Shown here: positions 8,535 to 26,669 of the stretch, in pieces
Position numbering within the stretch: the first letter of the stretch is position 1
How the letters are laid out: each line of letters begins with the position of its first letter
IMG/VR virus record: IMGVR_UViG_3300005663_000155
Location: 1 to 30,852 of that record
DNA length: 30,852 nt
Direction: 5' to 3' (one strand)
Origin: a virus
Notes under the pieces: model-generated
The model's database searches: none
Told to the model about the DNA's origin: nothing
What the model saw: only the letters and a program-made list of their open reading frames with translations
Program-made: the position numbers and the translations under genes

Positions 8535-8609
8535 CCCGGGGTAGCTCAGCCGTAGAGCAATCGGTCGATAACCGATAGGTCGGAGGTTCAAATCCTTCTC
8601 CTGGGACCA
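8535..8609 (+). tRNA. tRNA-Ile(GAU), non-canonical C33 and shortened D-loop
   Basis: A full cloverleaf folds. Acceptor CCCGGGG/TCCTGGG has seven pairs, two of them G-U. D-stem GCTC/GAGC has the loop AGCCGTA. The anticodon stem ATCGG/CCGAT holds the loop TCGATAA. The variable loop is AGGTC. T-stem GGAGG/CCTTC has the loop TTCAAAT. CCA is encoded. The anticodon GAT at 8569-8571 reads Ile AUC/AUU. Two departures are visible: position 33 is C instead of the near-universal U, and the D-loop has a single G where GG (18-19) is usual. It could decode the frequent AUC codons here, but the defects raise doubt about ordinary decoding. A T6 run follows at 8611-8616. Confidence 0.8.
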
Positions 8610-11687: not shown

Positions 11688-12288
11688 CGAGCACCCCTAC
11701 ATCCAGGGGACGTTCCCGTATCATCATGTAATGCTGGATCTGGAGACCATGGGGTTGCCTCCGCGCGGGGCCATCATCAGCATAGGTCTGTGCTACTTTG
11801 ACATCAGGACCGGGGAGATCGGGCCGACGTTCGAGCGTAACATCGCCCTGGACAGCTCGGTGGAGCGCGGGATGACCATCGACCAGGGGTGCGTGGACTT
11901 CTGGAACCAGTCTGATACCCAGGTGGCCTTCGAGATCTTGAAGCAGGACCCTGTGCGGCTGGAGGTGGCGCTGATGGAGTTGATCGACTTTATCACCGAG
12001 CACAAGAAGCATCCGTGCCTATGGGGCAATGGCAGCAACTTCGACAACGTCATCCTGGAGCAAGCGTTCAAGCTCTGTGACCTGCACTTCATCGCCCACT
12101 TCAGGCAGTGGCGTGATATGCGCACCTGGGTGATGCTGGGGGCTAAGCTGCTGGGAATGAACAAGGCAGAGATGCGGGCTGATTTCAACGACGAGGGGTT
12201 CAGGAAGCACGTGGCGATTGACGACGCGATTTTACAGGCTAAAATTGTCAGTAGAATCTGGCAAGAGGCAAAGAGGAGAATCTCATGA
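11647..12288 (+). CDS. 3'-5' exonuclease, DnaQ-like fold (Rv2179c/DexA type), 213 aa
   Basis: DEDD exonucleases use four acidic residues and two metals to remove 3' nucleotides. Exo I is D31-L-E33 in VMLDLETMG. Exo II is D133 in GNGSNFDN. Exo III is H188-x-A-x-x-D193 (HVAIDDA), the DEDDh arrangement. The segment ISIGLCYFDIRTGEIGPTF after Exo I and the length match the group that includes T4 DexA and the PF16473 exoribonuclease-like family. The start is GTG at 11647 with GGAGG five bases before. It may trim RNA or DNA ends during nucleotide salvage or replication. Substrate unknown. Confidence 0.85.
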   Translation: MTESVFERALIAADEHPYIQGTFPYHHVMLDLETMGLPPRGAIISIGLCYFDIRTGEIGPTFERNIALDSSVERGMTIDQGCVDFWNQSDTQVAFEILKQDPVRLEVALMELIDFITEHKKHPCLWGNGSNFDNVILEQAFKLCDLHFIAHFRQWRDMRTWVMLGAKLLGMNKAEMRADFNDEGFRKHVAIDDAILQAKIVSRIWQEAKRRIS

Positions 12289-13079
12289 AGATGATCGTCA
12301 AGCTGTGGAGTAACTGGACCCTGGACTTTATGCACCTTGCGCTGTCACTGGTCTTGGTGCATTCGCTAATCCTGGTCATGGACATGGACAAAAAAATGGG
12401 GGAGCTGGAGAAAAGCCTGGAGTTGAAGTCCCAGACTCTGCTGTGGACCACAGCGCAGCGTGACGTGTTGCAGGACTATTACTACAACGGCGAGGTGGAC
12501 GTGGCTACTGTCGAGGAGTGGGTGGTCCTGGCTGAGTATGAGAAATTCAAGGGCACGACCGACAGGGCATGGGATATAAGCAAAATCGTCGAAGCCATCC
12601 ATCTCCTGACACAGGACAGGTACAGAGACAGGAGTGGCGGGCAAGTATACGAGATCGCGAAGGCCGTCTATGAGTCCTCGAAGGAATTCAAACTACCGTT
12701 TGAGGTGGTCCTGGCCGTGGCCTGGGGTGAGAGCCGGTATCGTGACGACATCTGTACGGGGTACATGGAGAGCCCGGTGGGAGCCGTGGGCTGTATGCAG
12801 GTGATGCCGTTCTGGGCCGAGGCGCTGGATTTTGTCGCTGATGCTGATGAGCTACGCTATGACTTGCATGTGAACATCCGGGCGGGGGCCGCGGTTCTGC
12901 GGTATTACCTGGATCGCCCGATGGTCAAGGGGGAGCACCCGTTGAAGGTGGCCCTGCTGATGTACCAGTACGGTGAGTCAGCGTATCGCTCAAGGACGCG
13001 CAGGGGGCTGGGGTTTAATGGCTACGCTGAGCGTGTGATCAAGAAGGCAGTTCAAATCAAGAAAAAGGTGCGCATCTGA
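12285..13079 (+). CDS. Membrane-anchored SLT-type lytic transglycosylase, 264 aa
   Basis: This is a peptidoglycan-cleaving enzyme acting in the periplasm. An N-terminal hydrophobic segment (residues about 16-33, HLALSLVLVHSLILV) acts as a signal anchor, followed by a linker with coiled-coil character. The catalytic domain covers about residues 120-260: E149 in AVAWGESRYRDD, the G-A-V-G-C-M-Q-V-M-P motif (166-175), then NIRAGAAVLRYYL and ALLMYQYGES, the standard SLT (GH23) order. With a membrane anchor and no tail-protein context it is more likely the lysis enzyme than a virion lysin. The AAGAGGAGA site precedes the ATG, which overlaps the exonuclease stop. Confidence 0.85.
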   Translation: MKMIVKLWSNWTLDFMHLALSLVLVHSLILVMDMDKKMGELEKSLELKSQTLLWTTAQRDVLQDYYYNGEVDVATVEEWVVLAEYEKFKGTTDRAWDISKIVEAIHLLTQDRYRDRSGGQVYEIAKAVYESSKEFKLPFEVVLAVAWGESRYRDDICTGYMESPVGAVGCMQVMPFWAEALDFVADADELRYDLHVNIRAGAAVLRYYLDRPMVKGEHPLKVALLMYQYGESAYRSRTRRGLGFNGYAERVIKKAVQIKKKVRI

Positions 13080-13672
13080 TGATATTGATCGGGATCGGGG
13101 GTAAGGCCCGGGCTGGCAAGGACACGGTGGCCCGGTATTTAGTGAGTGAGCACGGGCTATACCATGCCTCATTCGCCAGGCGTCTGAAGCAGGTGACCCA
13201 GGTAAAGTTCGGGCTCCTCGACGAGGAGTGCAGCAAGAAGAATTACAGCAAGGTGATCGAGCGCTGGGGTATAAGTTTCCGGAAGATGCTGCAGCTTGAG
13301 GGCACTGAGGCGGGATGGCAGCTATATGACAGACACATGTCCCCAGGGCCCAGCCTATGGGTCAGGCACATTGCCCACGAGTGGATGATCGTCCAGGGGT
13401 CAGAGAATTTTCAGGGCATGGTCCTCTCGGACATGCGGTTCCAACACGAGCTTGACTGGATCAAGTCTCAGGGCGGATTCGGGTGGAAGGTTTTACGCCC
13501 AGAGGCTGATGGGGACGTGGGGATCAAAGGGCACGCCAGTGAGACCTGGGAATTCGAGGCTGATGTTGAGATCCTGAATAACGCGACTATCCCCGACCTA
13601 TTCGCGCGCACAGAGCGCCAGATGAGGAAGGTGTTGCAGGGGAATGGAGTCCTTCGTAGTCATGCTGATTGA
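13079..13672 (+). CDS. Deoxynucleoside monophosphate kinase (T4 gp1-like), 197 aa
   Basis: The enzyme phosphorylates dNMPs using ATP to feed phage DNA synthesis. A P-loop lies at the N-terminus, GGKARAGKDT (residues 7-16), the G-K-x-x-x-G-K-D form typical of phage dNMP kinases. RKMLQLEGTEAGW and VLSDMRFQHELDWI (matching the family's 'D-x-R-F-x-x-E' element) follow, then a GHASET region. Length and order match the T4 gene 1 family. The start overlaps the transglycosylase stop. It complements the MazG-like and 2-deoxyribosyltransferase-like proteins. Confidence 0.85.
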   Translation: MILIGIGGKARAGKDTVARYLVSEHGLYHASFARRLKQVTQVKFGLLDEECSKKNYSKVIERWGISFRKMLQLEGTEAGWQLYDRHMSPGPSLWVRHIAHEWMIVQGSENFQGMVLSDMRFQHELDWIKSQGGFGWKVLRPEADGDVGIKGHASETWEFEADVEILNNATIPDLFARTERQMRKVLQGNGVLRSHAD

Positions 13673-18471: not shown

Positions 18472-20424
18472 GTGCCCAAAAAGAAGGACAAGAATCAAGA
18501 GCCATCCATGACCCCGGAAGAGCTTGAGCAGTCCGAAGCGCTCAAGGCCATGGGGCTCAACACCGACGTGACCCTGATTAAGCGCAGGAAACTGAGCAAG
18601 CAGGATCAGGCTGTCTTAGAGTCCAATGCGTTCACGGCCGATGACGAGTTCTCGACCCTGCACGAGGACGACCGCAGGCAGATCATCAACCCACCGTTTC
18701 ATCTGAGGCTCCTGGTCCATCTGTGTGCCCATAATAACGCCCTGATGCAGAACATCGCGGCGATGGAGGTCAACATAGACGGCACAGGGCACGAGATTGT
18801 ACCTAAGGATCTAGGCACGTCCGAGGATGAGGCAGACGATAAGCAGCCGCCTGAGGGCGAGGAACCGGTGCCCGTGGCCCCCACCCCCGAGGAGATCGCC
18901 GCCGAGGCTGAGCAGAAGAGGAAGCAACAGGTGGCCGAGGATTTTTTCAGCGAGCCCTGGCCTAACACATCGTTCATGACCATGAGGCGCGAGTTGAGAC
19001 GGGGGCTTGAGGTCACTGGCGTTGCGTATCTGGAGGTGATTCGTAACCCCAAGGGCGAGATCATGTTGGTGAACAACGTTGACCCGACGACCATCAGGCT
19101 GGTGAGGCTTGACATGGCTGTGGTCAAGGACATCACGCTCATGCGTAGGGGCCGGGAGATGAATGTGAAGCTCCTGACCAGGGAGAGGAGATACATGCAG
19201 CGCACCGGTAGTGTGCGGGCGGAGAATGTGGCGGGCACCCCGAAGATCGAGAGGGGCAAGGGAATGGTCTTTTTTAAGGAATATAAGGCCAGCCGTGAAC
19301 TGAATAAAATGACCGGTGCCTGGGAGACTGCGGATAAGCCAGTCGCGATGCCCGACCGGGCCAGCGAGCTGATTATGTTCACGGTGAACAAGATGCCGGG
19401 GACCCCGTATGGTGTGCCGCGGTGGATCAATCAGACCCCCAGTATCCTGGGCTCACGTAAGGCCGAGGAGCTGAATCTGGACTTTTTCAACAGTGGCGGG
19501 CTACCCCCGGCGATGATCATTATCCAGGGCGGTGTCCTGACCGAGGTGGTCAGGCAGCAGATCCAGACCTACCTGAGCGGCAAGGGGGCGAGCAAGAACC
19601 GGGCGATGGTCATCGAGGTACACGCGGCCGGTGGGGACATGGACAAGCCGGGCAACGTCAAGGTGCTAGTCGAGAGATTCGGATCTGAGCGCTTGAAGGA
19701 CAGCATGTTCGAGGTCTACAACACGAACAACGAGAAACGCGTGCGGTCCAGTTTCCGTTTGCCGCCGCTGTTCGTGGGCAAAAGTGAGGACATGAACTTC
19801 GCGACGGCCAAGACCTCGTACATGATCGCAGAGGCCCAGGTGTTCAAGCCCGAGCGCGAGGAGTTCGACGAGGTGATGAACAAGACGATCATGAGGGAGA
19901 TCGCCCCAGATTTTATATTTCACTCCCTGGCCATCACCCTGCGCGACGTGGACAGCCAGATCAAGGGCGTTGAGCTTGCGATCAAGGCCGGGGCCATAAC
20001 TAACAAGGATGTGGTGGAGACCCTGAACGAGATCGTCGATTTGACCTTTGAGGTCCCTGAAGAGGTTGAGATGATCAAGCCGCCTGCCCCACCGATGCCC
20101 CCAGGGGGTATTCCCGAGGGGGTTCCTAATGGGGAGGGGGGCGAATCCCTGCAGCGGGCTATGAAGATGGGCATGGAGGAGGTGATCCACCTGGCTCAGG
20201 AGTGGGCGGTGATGACCGTCGGCGAAAAAGAGCCGAGCCCAGACGCCAGGAAGACCATGGTCAGGATCGTGAAGAACCTGCCGGAGCAATACAAGGCGAT
20301 GTTCCATCACCTGGCGGCTATCAATATGATGGCTGGGTATGGCCACGATCCCGCGGGGGCCGATCAACTCAGTGAGATTGCAGCCTTGGCCATCCACCAG
20401 GATCATGACCACGGCGATGGTTGA
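18472..20424 (+). CDS. Phage portal protein, 650 aa
   Basis: The portal forms the dodecameric vertex through which DNA enters and leaves the head. The sequence shows the portal family pattern: an N-terminal arm, then strands and helices with FMTMRRELRRGLEVTGVAYLEVIRN, VNNVDPTTIRLV, PGTPYGVPRWINQ, LNLDFFNSGGLPPAMIII and SFRLPPLFVGKSEDMNFATAKTSY, as in PF04860/PBSX-type portals. An acidic Pro/Glu-rich insertion lies near residues 115-150, and the C-terminus has a Pro-rich then His/Asp tail. The start is GTG at 18472 after GGAGGAG. It is followed by the MuF protein, the usual partner. Confidence 0.9.
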   Translation: MPKKKDKNQEPSMTPEELEQSEALKAMGLNTDVTLIKRRKLSKQDQAVLESNAFTADDEFSTLHEDDRRQIINPPFHLRLLVHLCAHNNALMQNIAAMEVNIDGTGHEIVPKDLGTSEDEADDKQPPEGEEPVPVAPTPEEIAAEAEQKRKQQVAEDFFSEPWPNTSFMTMRRELRRGLEVTGVAYLEVIRNPKGEIMLVNNVDPTTIRLVRLDMAVVKDITLMRRGREMNVKLLTRERRYMQRTGSVRAENVAGTPKIERGKGMVFFKEYKASRELNKMTGAWETADKPVAMPDRASELIMFTVNKMPGTPYGVPRWINQTPSILGSRKAEELNLDFFNSGGLPPAMIIIQGGVLTEVVRQQIQTYLSGKGASKNRAMVIEVHAAGGDMDKPGNVKVLVERFGSERLKDSMFEVYNTNNEKRVRSSFRLPPLFVGKSEDMNFATAKTSYMIAEAQVFKPEREEFDEVMNKTIMREIAPDFIFHSLAITLRDVDSQIKGVELAIKAGAITNKDVVETLNEIVDLTFEVPEEVEMIKPPAPPMPPGGIPEGVPNGEGGESLQRAMKMGMEEVIHLAQEWAVMTVGEKEPSPDARKTMVRIVKNLPEQYKAMFHHLAAINMMAGYGHDPAGADQLSEIAALAIHQDHDHGDG

Positions 20425-22183
20425 TATAGCGGCTGCCCCGACTAGAGCGACAACGGAGTCCAGAGCCCCCCAGGCCACGACAGTACGCCGCGAGGCCTTT
20501 CTGGCCATCGAGGACTCCCTGGCCATCCCCACATTCAACTCCTGGAAGCGAGAGGCTTCCTCTGTGGTCCAGAAGATTGCTGACCGGTTTCAGGCCGGGG
20601 ACATCAACGGGGCATTCGCGGCCGTCGAGGAGCTGGACCTGGGGCCTGTGGCTCGCAGGCAAGAGCGCAGGGCCCGGTTCACGGGGGAGATGGCTGTGAT
20701 CTTTGGGGCTACCGACTTCGCGCGGGCCAGGAACACCCGATTCGCGAAGGAACAGGTGCCGGAGGTGGTTGACAGGGCGGTCGAGATCTTCCAGATGACG
20801 CTGATAGACACGAATGAGGTGGTTAGGAGAGAGGCTCGGATATTCCTACAGCAGAAGCTGGACGAGAAGGAAGGCCGGGTCCCTATGCAGAAGCTGGTGG
20901 GTTCGTTCGCCGTGGATCTAGGGCAGAGGGCCATTGGCGCTGGCGGCCAGAATATCTTGCTAGCGAGCAGCCTGCATGCCTCCAGGTTAGGGAGCTGGGG
21001 ATTCACTCAGGAGGCTACGGCGCGAAACGTCCAATTCTACCGGGTGTCGGAGCAGTTAGACATCCGGACTTGCCCCGTTTGTCGGGAGATGAACGGCAAG
21101 GTATTCTCAGTCGCCGGGGCCGCGGATAAGCTGAATCGCTGGCTGTCTGTGGACAACCCGAACGACATGAAGACTATCGCCACATGGCCCAGCCAGAGCA
21201 GGGCCGGGATACGGAACCTCAAGGCGATGAACACCGAGCAGCTCTCGGGAGCTGGCTGGGACACGCCGCCATATCACCCATTCTGTCGAGGGGTATTGAG
21301 GAAGAGCAGGAAGGGCCCGACCGTAGGGGCCCCGGGGGCCTTGGAGCCGGGTGTGGCTCCTCGTGTCAGGCCTGGGCGTTCAGCTCTGCCTCTGGATCAG
21401 TATGCCAAGCAATTCGACGATCCGAATATCACGGCGGGCGCGATCCTGGATGATCTGTCACCATCCGTCAGGAGAGAGGTGATCGAGAATGACATTAACC
21501 TGAGGAGGCTGCGGGCTACCGATACCGTTCACAAGGTGGACGGGGCATGGACTACGGAAAGGCTGGCTGTGCACGATAGCATTCTTGGTGACATATTCAC
21601 GACCGACGCGGTGGCCGCGGCCACGCCAGAGGCAGGGGTGGCTCCCAGATTCACTATGCTCGGGGGCCGTGGTGGATCGGGTAAGGGGGCCCTGGAGGGC
21701 AGGGTATTCGATCCGAAGACCAACATCGTCCTGGACCCGGACAAGATCAAGGCGGGGCTGCCAGAATTCAGGGGCTGGAATGCTGCCCAGGTGCATCAGG
21801 AGTCCTCATTCATATTCGCCGAGGCCCATAGAATCGCGCGGGACCTGAGACTGAACGTGGTCAGTGATGCCACGATGCGCGACCTGGCCAAGGTGCAGGG
21901 GCTGTTGAAGGACTTCAAGAAGTCGGGGTATAGCATCGAGGGCCATTATATGTTCTTGCCTAGGCAGGACGCCGCTCTGAGGGCTGTGACCCGGTTCCTG
22001 GCAAGCGGGCCGAGAAAACGTGGCAGATATGTGCCGGTGGACGTGGTCCTGAATAACATCGACAACGATGCCAACTTCCAGGCATTGAAGTCGTTTTTTG
22101 GGCGCTGGTCGATCTGGGATAACCAGGTCCCCAAAGGGAGATCCCCTCTCTTTGTTGGGGGTAAAGGGGTGGCGTTCCCTTGA
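20405..22183 (+). CDS. MuF head protein fused to a Zeta-toxin-type kinase domain, 592 aa
   Basis: Residues about 25-305 are a MuF/SPP1 gp7 head morphogenesis domain. Its hallmark block begins with RTCPVCREMNGKVFSV (C223, C226) and ends with PPYHPFCRGVLRK. A linker follows. Residues about 385-585 resemble Zeta toxin kinases: a P-loop GGRGGSGKG (K427), DPDKIKAGLPEFRG, then NVVSDATMRD, which corresponds to the family's 'E-G-T-L-R' segment, and LLKDFKKSGYSIEGHYMF. Zeta enzymes phosphorylate UDP-N-acetylglucosamine and poison wall synthesis. The P-loop has Gly where Ser/Thr usually follows the Lys, so activity needs proof. MuF proteins carrying C-terminal toxin domains are known. The start at 20405 overlaps the portal end; the ATG at 20417 is an alternative. 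Confidence 0.8.
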   Translation: MTTAMVDIAAAPTRATTESRAPQATTVRREAFLAIEDSLAIPTFNSWKREASSVVQKIADRFQAGDINGAFAAVEELDLGPVARRQERRARFTGEMAVIFGATDFARARNTRFAKEQVPEVVDRAVEIFQMTLIDTNEVVRREARIFLQQKLDEKEGRVPMQKLVGSFAVDLGQRAIGAGGQNILLASSLHASRLGSWGFTQEATARNVQFYRVSEQLDIRTCPVCREMNGKVFSVAGAADKLNRWLSVDNPNDMKTIATWPSQSRAGIRNLKAMNTEQLSGAGWDTPPYHPFCRGVLRKSRKGPTVGAPGALEPGVAPRVRPGRSALPLDQYAKQFDDPNITAGAILDDLSPSVRREVIENDINLRRLRATDTVHKVDGAWTTERLAVHDSILGDIFTTDAVAAATPEAGVAPRFTMLGGRGGSGKGALEGRVFDPKTNIVLDPDKIKAGLPEFRGWNAAQVHQESSFIFAEAHRIARDLRLNVVSDATMRDLAKVQGLLKDFKKSGYSIEGHYMFLPRQDAALRAVTRFLASGPRKRGRYVPVDVVLNNIDNDANFQALKSFFGRWSIWDNQVPKGRSPLFVGGKGVAFP

Positions 22184-22219
22184 TCCGTGTTATGCTCTAA
22201 ATGTAGAGGTGCATATTCT

Positions 22220-22957
22220 ATGGTCATGAGAGCTGACGGCAAAGACGAGATCAGATTCAAGGACAGGCTAGTCACCTTCGAGGAACTGGATGACGAGGTG
22301 ACAAAACGTGGCCTTGAAGAGGCGCGTGCTATTCCCCAGGAAGAGATTGACGCTACGATCCGGAAACTGGGACACGGTGATCGACTTGATCAGGTCCGTG
22401 AGGGAGGCTCAGTGACCAGGCATTTTCTGACCATGTTGCTGTGCGTGTCTCTGGGCGTGGTCGCGCAGGTGGCCGTGTGGGCGGTTGACGTATATGGCCG
22501 TGAGCATGACGCTCCAGTGATCGGAGAGGCCCCCTTTGATAGCCCTATCCCGTTCATCGGGCGATTCAGGGAGGTGTTCGCGGGGCCCGATGATCCGTTC
22601 CCGGGTGAAGATGTGCGCGAGTATTGCGCCACGATGTCATCGGCGTACAGCACTATACTGAAGCGCAGGCACGCGGGGATTCCAATAGGTATGGTCAGAA
22701 AGTGGCTGGCTGAGTCCCTTGCCTTGGGCGGGGATAAGGTGGAGATAGTCAGGGCACTAGAGCAAACGGACGAGGCTTATTCTGGTGATGGGTTCAATGA
22801 TACCCAGGTCTGGTTCGCTCGCGGTCAGGCGTGTATGGACAGCCGACTTGAGGGCACCTGGTATACCTACGATTGGCAAGGCGACCCCAACTACCCTAAG
22901 TCCTTTGATCCCAGGACACAGGAAAGGCTACCCCAACCTAAACGCACCACGATATAG
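22220..22957 (+). CDS. Envelope-targeted unknown protein with internal second start, 245 aa
   Basis: ATG at 22220, with AGAGG about ten bases upstream. Residues 1-64 are soluble and acidic. A hydrophobic stretch at about 66-86 (FLTMLLCVSLGVVAQVAVWAV) precedes a C-terminal domain with two cysteines (REYCATMSSAYSTILKRRHAG and ARGQACMDSRL). That C-E/A-x-M-...-R-x-A-G-I-P pattern resembles a family of exported bacterial and phage proteins of unknown function. A GTG at 22412 in the same frame has GGAGG five bases upstream and would start a protein with a clean signal peptide, so two forms are possible. Its position among head genes is unusual. Confidence 0.6.
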   Translation: MVMRADGKDEIRFKDRLVTFEELDDEVTKRGLEEARAIPQEEIDATIRKLGHGDRLDQVREGGSVTRHFLTMLLCVSLGVVAQVAVWAVDVYGREHDAPVIGEAPFDSPIPFIGRFREVFAGPDDPFPGEDVREYCATMSSAYSTILKRRHAGIPIGMVRKWLAESLALGGDKVEIVRALEQTDEAYSGDGFNDTQVWFARGQACMDSRLEGTWYTYDWQGDPNYPKSFDPRTQERLPQPKRTTI

Positions 22958-22993: not shown

Positions 22994-23009
22994 GTCCACA
23001 CGTGTGGAT
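22994..23009. promoter_or_regulatory. Palindromic operator-like site, copy 3
   Basis: GTCCACACGTGTGGAT has one outer-base change from the perfect palindrome. It sits between the stop at 22957 and the ATG at 23049. Confidence 0.6.
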
Positions 23010-23048
23010 GGCCGGAGCGCATGCGTGACAATCTCCCTTTGTAAGAAT

Positions 23049-23588
23049 ATGTTTGAGCGGACGTGGGTGGCCAAGCCATCTACGAGCCGTCGTCAATTCC
23101 TGCTATTTGCAGCGGCCTGTAGAAGCGCCGCGGCTGCCCGCGAGCGCGGCGTAAGCCAGCAGGTGGCCTGCGAGAACTTCCTGGAGGATATGAGACGGGC
23201 GTGCCGGAACGATAAGCACCGGAGGCTGATCGGTGTCTCGCGTGCAGCCGCGTGCAGGCGCGCGCGCGAGGGCCTGGGGGGGCGTCAGGGACGGTCTGAT
23301 AAAGGCAAGAAGAGCGTGACAGAGAGAGTCAGGGACATGCTCTTGGAGAGCCTGAAGGCAGTCCATCTCCCTGGACAAGGGAGGCGGCAATGCCCGCCTG
23401 GCATGAGGATGAGGGGCGGCAGGTGTGTGCAGGTACGGAAGCCCAAGCAGGGCCCGAATGATTTGACTGTGGATGACCTAGCCACTGAGGGCGGGTTACT
23501 TAGTCCCCAGCAAGGCCCCGAGAAGTGCCCACCGGGCAAGGTGAGGGAACCTGTCACTGGGCGATGCGTTCCCAAGAGAAGGCGATGA
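23049..23588 (+). CDS. Cys-motif protein carrying a capsid-like peptide, 179 aa
   Basis: I chose the ATG at 23049; the ribosome-binding site is weak (TAAGA), and an in-frame GTG at 23004 lies inside the palindrome and is unlikely. The N-terminal half is basic and helical with several cysteines (C24, C41, C52, C69). Two C-P-P-G-...-G-R-C-V units follow (115-127 and 160-173). Between them residues 138-155 read DLTVDDLATEGGLLSPQQ, nearly the same as residues 13-29 of the major capsid protein. It may bind the capsid or protease by mimicry. No known family. Confidence 0.6.
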   Translation: MFERTWVAKPSTSRRQFLLFAAACRSAAAARERGVSQQVACENFLEDMRRACRNDKHRRLIGVSRAAACRRAREGLGGRQGRSDKGKKSVTERVRDMLLESLKAVHLPGQGRRQCPPGMRMRGGRCVQVRKPKQGPNDLTVDDLATEGGLLSPQQGPEKCPPGKVREPVTGRCVPKRRR

Positions 23589-25697: not shown

Positions 25698-26669
25698 ATG
25701 ACCGACAACAAGAAACTTATCCAGAAGGCGGACTGGACGGTAGGTGACCTGACCTCAGAAGGCGGATTGCTGAACCCTGAGCAGACGGATGAGTTTATCC
25801 GGAAGCTGGTTCATGTGCAGCCCACGATTCTGCGGGATGCACGCGTCGTCCGGATGAATGCGCCCGTGCGCAAGATCAACAAGATCGGCTTCAATACCCG
25901 TATCATGGCGGCGGCTCCGTCGTCTGGCACGGCGCTGGGTGCCGGTCTGCGTTCTCGTCCCACGACCGAGCAGGTGACGCTGACGACCAGCGAGGTGATC
26001 GCTGAGGTTCGGCTGCCTTACGACGTGATCGAGGACAACATCGAGCGCGGCACCATCGACGACAACATCGCGTCTGGCCCAGCGGCTGGCAGCGGTATCA
26101 GCCGGGATGGCATCAAGGACACGATCATGACCTTGATCGCCGAGCGTGCGGCCATCGACCTGGAAGAGCTTGCTCTCCTGGGCGATACCGGCTCCGGCGA
26201 CCCCTACCTGGCTCTCCAGGACGGGTGGTTGAAGCTCTCGGGTGTCGTGAACTTCGTGGACAACGGATTCGCGACGGTCAGCAAGGACCTGTTCAAGGCC
26301 GGTCTCAAGACCATGCCTGACCAGTACCTGCGCAATCTGGCGGCTCTCCGCCACTACGTCTCCATGGACCAGCTCATCGAGTATCGTGACACGTTCGCGA
26401 CTCGCGAGACGGCTCTGGGCGATGCGCAGTTGCAGGGCACGGGTCCGGTCTTCGGCTTCGGTGTCCCGGTCAACGCGGCACTGCAGCTCCCGAACGCGAG
26501 CGGCATGTTGACCAACCCTCTGAACCTGATCTGGGGTATCCAGCGTCGGGTGACGATGGAGGTCGACAAGGACATCCGCACGCGGGAGTTCATCATCGTT
26601 CTCACGGCCAGGGTGGCTGTCGAGATCGAGGAGGACGAGGCCGTCGTCAAGTACACCAACATCGGCTAA
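25698..26669 (+). CDS. Major capsid protein, HK97 fold, 323 aa
   Basis: This protein forms the capsid shell. Features of this capsid group are visible: an N-terminal arm (residues 1-40), DEFIRKLVHVQPTILRDARVV, APVRKINKIGF and EVRLPYDVIEDN (E-loop to spine). IAERAAIDLEELALLGDTGS then leads into the P and A domains, and FGFGVPVNAALQLP precedes the C-terminal TREFIIVLTARVAVEIEE. Length fits. CGC/CGT and GGC codons match high expression, and GGAGGATCTACG precedes the ATG. A short peptide at residues 13-29 is shared with the 23049 gene. Confidence 0.9.
   Translation: MTDNKKLIQKADWTVGDLTSEGGLLNPEQTDEFIRKLVHVQPTILRDARVVRMNAPVRKINKIGFNTRIMAAAPSSGTALGAGLRSRPTTEQVTLTTSEVIAEVRLPYDVIEDNIERGTIDDNIASGPAAGSGISRDGIKDTIMTLIAERAAIDLEELALLGDTGSGDPYLALQDGWLKLSGVVNFVDNGFATVSKDLFKAGLKTMPDQYLRNLAALRHYVSMDQLIEYRDTFATRETALGDAQLQGTGPVFGFGVPVNAALQLPNASGMLTNPLNLIWGIQRRVTMEVDKDIRTREFIIVLTARVAVEIEEDEAVVKYTNIG

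What the first reader, a model, noticed from the sequence alone, without database searches (positions are those of the whole stretch)
20405..22183. Capsid MuF protein fused to a Zeta-type kinase: virion-delivered toxin candidate
The C-terminal ~200 residues carry a P-loop, a D-P-D-K segment and a D-A-T-M-R segment in the order of Zeta toxins, joined to a MuF head domain. MuF proteins travel with the particle, so the kinase could act on the new host or on competitors. No epsilon-like antitoxin is obvious next to it, and the P-loop has Gly after the Lys instead of Ser/Thr.
Basis: partly seen in the sequence, partly recalled or inferred. Interest (0 to 1): 0.72.

Follow-up and report, generated by a model that had tools for sequence, protein, structure and literature searches.

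The report
Phage capsid protein carrying a kinase
A minor capsid protein of an uncultured bacterial virus ends in a Zeta-toxin-like kinase that the particle probably carries into the new host; such fusions were already described, but published mass-spectrometry data and pocket residues collected here suggest that they really travel in virions and may phosphorylate something other than the cell-wall precursor usually assumed.

Summary
Window 20405-22183 (start more likely 20417) encodes a MuF-type minor head protein fused to a Zeta-family kinase: PF06414 E=3.5e-19, AlphaFold pLDDT 93.6, best solved matches Zeta, AvrRxo1 and PezT. It sits between portal and head-protease/capsid genes. A metagenomic sibling and three further MuF-Zeta clusters rule out misassembly. 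In 57 phage sequences the P-loop Lys, catalytic Asp, metal-site Asp and both arginines are invariant. Gly after the P-loop Lys is unusual (S/T in 54 of 57) but recurs in P-SS2, haloviruses and Bacteroides phages, and the domain is under purifying selection. No epsilon antitoxin in 14 phage records.

MuF-Zeta fusions are prior art (Iyer 2017, PMC5512222). What I add: the cyanophage P-SS2 MuF-Zeta protein was detected in purified virions with 96.5 peptides, listed as 'major capsid protein' (PMC2784084); the domain also sits in head operons of haloarchaeal viruses, whose hosts lack peptidoglycan; two UDP-GlcNAc-contact residues are not conserved, while an AQVHxESS motif shared with the NAD kinase AvrRxo1 is. 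Best reading: a virion-carried small-molecule kinase effector, substrate unproven. New member of a known kind.

The parts
20417..22183 (+). muf-zeta gene, 588 aa from the likely start (592 aa from the ATG at 20405); start overlaps the portal stop
   Evidence: conserved start in sibling L002, whose codon 1 equivalent is not a start
20483..21334 (+). MuF-type minor head domain (residues 27-310), with CPxC at 223 and HPxCR at 291
   Evidence: predicted mostly helical, pLDDT 83.4; no PDB fold match
21335..21439 (+). linker between the two domains (residues 311-345)
   Evidence: low pLDDT at the end of the MuF model; domain limits
21440..22159 (+). Zeta-type kinase domain (residues 346-585); Pfam match 409-551
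   Evidence: PF06414 E=3.5e-19; pLDDT 93.6, pTM 0.90; Foldseek to Zeta 3q8x E=1.5e-8
21662..21688 (+). P-loop GGRGGSGK (420-427) followed by Gly428 in place of the usual Ser/Thr
   Evidence: S 51, T 3, G 2, A 1 at this position in 57 phage sequences
21740..21742 (+). Asp446, equivalent of the zeta catalytic base Asp67; invariant
   Evidence: alignment; 57 of 57; role from PMC3062530
21785..21805 (+). AQVHQES motif (461-467), same as AQVHxES in AvrRxo1; absent from zeta and PezT
21866..21880 (+). DATMR (488-492): Asp488 = zeta Glu116 (metal), Thr490 = Thr118, Arg492 = Arg120
21992..22027 (+). Arg530 and Arg541, equivalents of zeta Arg158 and Arg171; invariant
   Evidence: 57 of 57; essential in zeta (PMC6356619); correspondence of these two by order and spacing
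18472..20424 (+). portal protein gene just upstream
   Evidence: phrog_12 E=7.2e-24; TIGR01540 E=2.4e-36
22187..22957 (+). downstream gene with a putative membrane segment; not a Zeta-specific immunity gene
   Evidence: homologue follows the Zeta-less MuF gene of L089
23646..24257 (+). XkdF-type head protease gene (context)
   Evidence: PF14550 E=2.6e-24
25698..26669 (+). major capsid protein gene (context)
   Evidence: phrog_1623 E=1e-94, phrog_10

Best explanation
The gene encodes a minor head protein with a cargo enzyme. The MuF domain places a few copies in the capsid near the portal (inferred from SPP1 and Mu). The C-terminal Zeta-type kinase travels inside the particle and reaches the cytoplasm of the newly infected cell with the DNA. 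There it phosphorylates a hydroxyl of a small nucleotide-type metabolite, using Lys427 to hold ATP, Asp446 as base and Asp488 plus Arg530/Arg541 for metal and phosphates, to help infection along. The fusion, the intact catalytic set and the head-operon position are shown here. Virion carriage is shown for the P-SS2 homologue only. Delivery, activity, substrate and benefit are inferred.
For: Zeta profile E=3.5e-19; confident model matching Zeta, AvrRxo1 and PezT. Catalytic positions invariant in 57 sequences. Purifying selection on the Zeta domain against the sibling: dN/dS 0.215, core 0.167, MuF part 0.045. The same MuF carries Zeta in four clusters, while relatives of this MuF carry ART-, GNAT-, ParB- or JAB-like tails, or none. 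Zeta is also joined to portal, protease and two other MuF types, and about half of the 37 upstream genes tested are portals. The P-SS2 MuF-Zeta protein gave 96.5 virion peptides on average; its MuF region offers only 24 fully tryptic 6-30-mers, so peptides beyond it were probably seen. No epsilon antitoxin.
Against: No experiment on this phage, which is a metagenomic contig. P-SS2 has a different MuF type and a 1500-aa protein; its peptides are not assigned to regions, and that search used no enzyme specificity. Gly428 removes the Mg2+-contacting Ser/Thr; in AvrRxo1 the change T167N left only weak activity. MuF ejection is known only for model phages and not for Zeta fusions.
Confidence: 0.6

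Rival explanations
1. UDP-GlcNAc kinase: the injected domain makes UDP-GlcNAc-3-phosphate, blocks peptidoglycan synthesis and weakens the wall for DNA entry or later lysis. This is the proposal of Iyer et al. 2017.
For: Closest solved relative by profile and fold is zeta, a UDP-GlcNAc kinase; Asp67, Thr118, Arg120, Arg158 and Arg171 equivalents are present; literature proposal.
Against: UDP-GlcNAc contacts Glu100 and Thr128 are Ala472 and Leu500 here and vary in the family, though mutants of these two in zeta keep some toxicity. The same domain lies in head operons of Haloarcula viruses, whose hosts lack peptidoglycan (general knowledge). AvrRxo1, the other close relative, does not use UDP-GlcNAc.
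Confidence: 0.2
2. MuF polymorphic toxin: a temperate phage uses the particle to poison competitors, and lysogens are protected by an immunity gene.
For: MuF plus variable C-terminal tail fits the MuF toxin layout; related Stenotrophomonas phage DLP5 is temperate (PMC5834331).
Against: No epsilon homologue; the next downstream gene also follows a Zeta-less MuF; no lysogeny gene seen among the window proteins scanned, though the record is a fragment.
Confidence: 0.12
3. Degenerate kinase kept as a structural or binding module.
For: Gly or Ala replaces the conserved Ser/Thr after the P-loop Lys in both the window and its sibling, while the MuF-Zeta clusters L043, L067 and L073 keep Thr or Ser; the Zeta part evolves faster than the MuF part.
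Against: All other catalytic residues are kept and the core dN/dS is 0.167. GKG also occurs in P-SS2, HVTV-1, HCTV-1, HCTV-5, Bacteroides phage DAC19, L070 and L151, and adenylate kinases have GKG too (general knowledge).
Confidence: 0.15

Closest known systems
Zeta-like kinases fused to MuF in phages (polyvalent proteins; Iyer et al. 2017, PMC5512222)
   Same: same domain pair and head context; injected-effector logic
   Different: that paper gives a short passage and proposes cell-wall weakening; here pocket residues, archaeal-virus occurrence and published virion peptides are added
Cyanophage P-SS2 ORF030 (ACT65592.1)
   Same: MuF followed by Zeta in one protein, GKG P-loop; found in virions
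   Different: 1499 aa with further domains including an ART-like one; different MuF type; Zeta about 31% identical
Zeta/PezT toxins of epsilon-zeta systems (1GVN, 3Q8X, 2P5T)
   Same: fold and catalytic residues
   Different: no antitoxin; Ser/Thr after P-loop Lys lost; Glu100 and Thr128 not kept; fused to a capsid protein
AvrRxo1 (NAD 3'-kinase, 4Z8Q)
   Same: longest fold alignment (about 260 columns), ER..LH helix and AQVHxESS motif
   Different: plant-pathogen effector with a partner protein; Walker A Thr present; NAD use untested for the phage domain
MuF polymorphic toxins (Jamet et al. 2017, PMC5576092; Apk2, PMC12226406)
   Same: MuF N-terminus with swappable enzymatic C-terminus
   Different: no small immunity gene found; the searched texts do not mention Zeta
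Haloarcula virus zeta proteins (HVTV-1 gp115, HCTV-1 gp109, HCTV-5 gp114)
   Same: Zeta domain in the head operon, GKG P-loop, HxE motif
   Different: not fused to MuF but encoded next to it or close by; archaeal host

Membership tests
PF06414 Zeta_toxin domain family | profile score above the curated cut-off | tested here: met
   69.5 bits vs 22.3
PF06414 Zeta_toxin domain family | Zeta/polynucleotide-kinase fold | tested here: met
   model pLDDT 93.6; Foldseek to 3q8x E=1.5e-8
PF06414 Zeta_toxin domain family | Walker A with Ser/Thr after Lys (a usual trait, not part of the profile-based definition) | tested here: not met
   Gly428; S/T in 54 of 57 sequences
PF06414 Zeta_toxin domain family | catalytic Asp, metal acidic residue, two Arg | tested here: met
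   D446, D488, R530, R541 invariant
epsilon-zeta toxin-antitoxin system | adjacent epsilon antitoxin | tested here: not met
   no PF08998 match in the window or 13 related records
epsilon-zeta toxin-antitoxin system | UDP-GlcNAc contacts Glu100 and Thr128 | tested here: not met
   Ala472, Leu500
epsilon-zeta toxin-antitoxin system | UDP-GlcNAc kinase activity | not testable with these tools
   needs enzyme assay
MuF minor head protein | Pfam/TIGRFAM score above cut-off | tested here: not met
   20.5 vs 29.6 bits; 28.4 vs 39.65 bits
MuF minor head protein | head operon position next to portal, CxxC...HPxCR signature, minor-head PHROG matches | tested here: met
   works in the MuF slot although curated cut-offs are missed
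MuF polymorphic toxin | MuF N-terminus with exchangeable C-terminal enzymatic domain | tested here: met
   relatives carry ART-, GNAT-, ParB-, JAB-like tails or none; most tail types read from sequence
MuF polymorphic toxin | small immunity gene downstream | tested here: not met
   next gene is 256 aa and also follows a Zeta-less MuF
MuF polymorphic toxin | toxic activity | not testable with these tools
   needs expression test
Virion-delivered (polyvalent) effector | presence in virions | tested here: inconclusive
   shown by published mass spectrometry for P-SS2 ORF030; not for this phage
AvrRxo1-like NAD 3'-kinase | ER..LH and AQVHxESS motifs | tested here: met
   alignment; 57 sequences. 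Not proven to be NAD-specific motifs
AvrRxo1-like NAD 3'-kinase | Walker A Thr | tested here: not met
   Gly428
AvrRxo1-like NAD 3'-kinase | NAD phosphorylation | not testable with these tools
   needs enzyme assay

The most novel reading that the evidence does not exclude
Phage heads carry a kinase of the AvrRxo1 type that phosphorylates NAD or another adenine nucleotide at the start of infection, in bacteria and archaea alike, for instance to blunt nucleotide- or NAD-based defences, rather than a UDP-GlcNAc kinase that attacks the cell wall.
Probability: 0.25. Interest if true: 0.8.

Novelty: new member of a known kind. Interest (0 to 1): 0.5.

Why it matters
Enzymes shipped inside capsids act before any phage gene is expressed, yet few besides T4 Alt are understood. 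A large family (175 viral contigs confirmed in one scan) puts a Zeta-type kinase on portal, MuF or protease proteins, and the published P-SS2 proteome shows that one such protein is a strongly detected virion component. That makes it directly testable what a capsid-borne Zeta kinase phosphorylates, and whether the cell-wall idea can be right for archaeal viruses too.

Tried and rejected
Misassembly or chance fusion: rejected, because L002, L043/L046/L047, L067/L068 and L073 show the same MuF-Zeta joint. ORF 22187-22957 as cognate antitoxin: rejected, homologue next to a Zeta-less MuF. HD-type phosphohydrolase genes downstream of Zeta as antidotes: PHROGs hinted at it in 7 of 31, but Pfam found no HD domain in the six tested and one weakly matches a minor capsid family, so dropped. 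Full-length folding of both domains: alignment A9 put MuF rows onto the Zeta region, so the two parts were folded apart. MuF model against PDB: no match. PADLOC: no match for this protein. One clade for all MuF-Zeta fusions: not recovered, 12 partner changes on the tree, but weak support and a quick search. A direct comparison with the plant effector's own sequence was left out; only the alignments printed by the search tools were used. The virion proteome paper of HVTV-1 is not held.
Full report
What is there. The window is a 30,852-base IMG/VR virus record. The gene at 20405-22183 follows the portal gene (18472-20424), overlaps its stop, and precedes a membrane-type gene, a small basic gene, an XkdF-type head protease and the major capsid gene. 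Upstream lies a family A DNA polymerase. The same order (polymerase, portal, MuF) is found in Vibrio phage VHB1. The start is probably 20417 rather than 20405, because the sibling contig L002 lacks a start codon at the earlier place.

Domains. Residues 409-551 match Pfam Zeta_toxin at E=3.5e-19. The N-terminal part is a diverged MuF: weak in Pfam and TIGRFAM, clear in PHROGs, with CPxC and HPxCR conserved in relatives. The Zeta domain folds with pLDDT 93.6 and pTM 0.90 from 57 sequences. Foldseek's best solved matches are zeta (E=1.5e-8), AvrRxo1 (1.9e-7, longest alignment) and PezT (6.3e-7). A profile search of PDB sequences gives the same three.

Relatives. One scan of viral contigs confirmed 175 relatives and kept 80 loci; a genome scan found only 23 loci. 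Four clusters share this very MuF type with Zeta: the window with L002, L043, L067 and L073. In other contigs Zeta is joined to portal proteins (8 of 57; L007), to a second MuF type (L039, L052, L075), to a protease-like protein (L085; one protease match), or stands alone among head genes (L003/L004). About half of the 37 upstream genes tested are portals. In turn, relatives of the window's MuF carry ADP-ribosyltransferase-, GNAT-, ParB- or JAB-like tails or nothing (several of these read from sequence only). L004 even has an operon of MuF, a separate Zeta and a separate ADP-ribosyltransferase. On a quick tree of the Zeta domain the partner changes at least 12 times, with modest support. This is how exchangeable cargo looks.

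Active site. Mapping onto zeta by the alignment: Lys46=Lys427, Asp67=Asp446, Glu116=Asp488, Thr118=Thr490, Arg120=Arg492; Arg158 and Arg171 correspond to Arg530 and Arg541 by order and spacing. Except for Arg492 (Arg or Lys in 50 of 57), these are invariant in 57 sequences. Asp67, Glu116, Arg158 and Arg171 are essential in zeta (PMC6356619). Thr47 is replaced by Gly428, and by Ala in the sibling. At this position 54 of 57 have Ser/Thr. The scan patterns fixed the P-loop up to Lys but not this residue, so the count is not forced. Gly is also found in L070, L151, P-SS2, HVTV-1, HCTV-1, HCTV-5 and DAC19. Between window and sibling dN/dS is 0.215 for the Zeta domain, 0.167 for its core, 0.16 for portal and 0.045 for MuF (one pair only). 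So the domain is maintained, and Gly428 does not prove it dead. In AvrRxo1 the T167N change left low but detectable NAD kinase activity (PMC5491322), so reduced activity is possible.

Virion carriage. Iyer et al. 2017 already wrote that zeta-toxin-like kinases are fused to MuF in phages and might weaken the wall for DNA injection (PMC5512222). The P-SS2 protein matched here (L005; MuF, Zeta and an ART-like part) is ORF030 of the P-SS2 paper, listed there as 'major capsid protein' and detected in purified particles with 96.5 peptides on average, second in the rows read to the tape measure protein at 102 (PMC2784084). Its MuF region yields only 24 fully tryptic peptides of 6-30 residues, so peptides beyond MuF were probably detected. 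Caveats: the paper's search used no enzyme specificity, peptides are not assigned to regions, and the MuF type differs.

Substrate. The zeta contacts to the uracil and ribose of UDP-GlcNAc, Thr128 and Glu100 (PMC3062530), are Leu500 and Ala472 here and not conserved in the family; both are partly dispensable in zeta. Instead the family has an invariant Glu in an A-Q-V-H-x-E-S motif plus an ER..LH helix, both visible in the AvrRxo1 alignment and absent from the zeta and PezT alignments. A standalone cellular zeta (L171) also lacks the motif, while another cellular protein (L170) has a related H-E-D-A-S, so the motif marks a wider group and is not proof of NAD use. AvrRxo1 lacks the UDP-GlcNAc motif and phosphorylates NAD (PMC5087710). 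Haloarcula viruses carry the domain next to gpF-like and capsid genes; their hosts have no peptidoglycan (general knowledge), so wall attack cannot be the general role.

Immunity. No epsilon family member occurs in the window or 13 related records. The gene after muf-zeta has a homologue in L089, where MuF has no Zeta tail. A late head gene whose product is sealed in capsids may need no antidote; this is inference.

Verdict. Real feature, well placed, new member of a known kind; virion carriage has indirect experimental support; substrate and effect are open and testable.

Noticed in passing
window 23004-23588 and 25698-26669: The C-terminal part of the small basic head-operon protein (DLTVDDLATEGGLLSPQQ) copies the N-terminus of the major capsid protein (DWTVGDLTSEGGLLNPEQ); local score 65, none of 1000 shuffles reached it. 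That part is conserved in L089. Possibly a capsid-contact or maturation peptide.
   Followed up: partly
Cyanophage P-SS2 ORF030 (GQ334450 17648-22147; L005 6786-11285): Listed in the proteome paper as major capsid protein, but it is a MuF-Zeta-ART-like fusion of 1499 aa with 96.5 virion peptides; the real major capsid gene of P-SS2 may be another one, for example ORF025.
   Followed up: partly
L004 4024-7950: Effector island in a head operon: MuF with a GNAT-like tail, a separate Zeta kinase and a separate ADP-ribosyltransferase (PF03496 E=2.3e-29), the last two starting with a similar NPxHxxxGxF peptide.
   Followed up: partly
L007, L040, L053, L070, L074, L078: Short HPRxxxGQF / NxxHDxxGRF peptides precede the Zeta domain in many portal-fused or separate copies; possible packaging or cleavage signal.
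   Followed up: no
L009-L081 group (about 35 clusters): A long N-terminal region with GDHVYF...GHK-type SH3/KOW-like repeats before Zeta, with portal just upstream; function unknown.
   Followed up: no
window 13079-13672: A second, unrelated nucleotide kinase: deoxynucleoside monophosphate kinase, phrog_139 E=1.1e-33.
   Followed up: no
window 8535-8609: tRNA-Ile gene, anticodon GAT.
   Followed up: no
window 12285-13079: Endolysin/transglycosylase-like protein (phrog_669, phrog_13449) inside the replication region rather than a lysis cassette.
   Followed up: no
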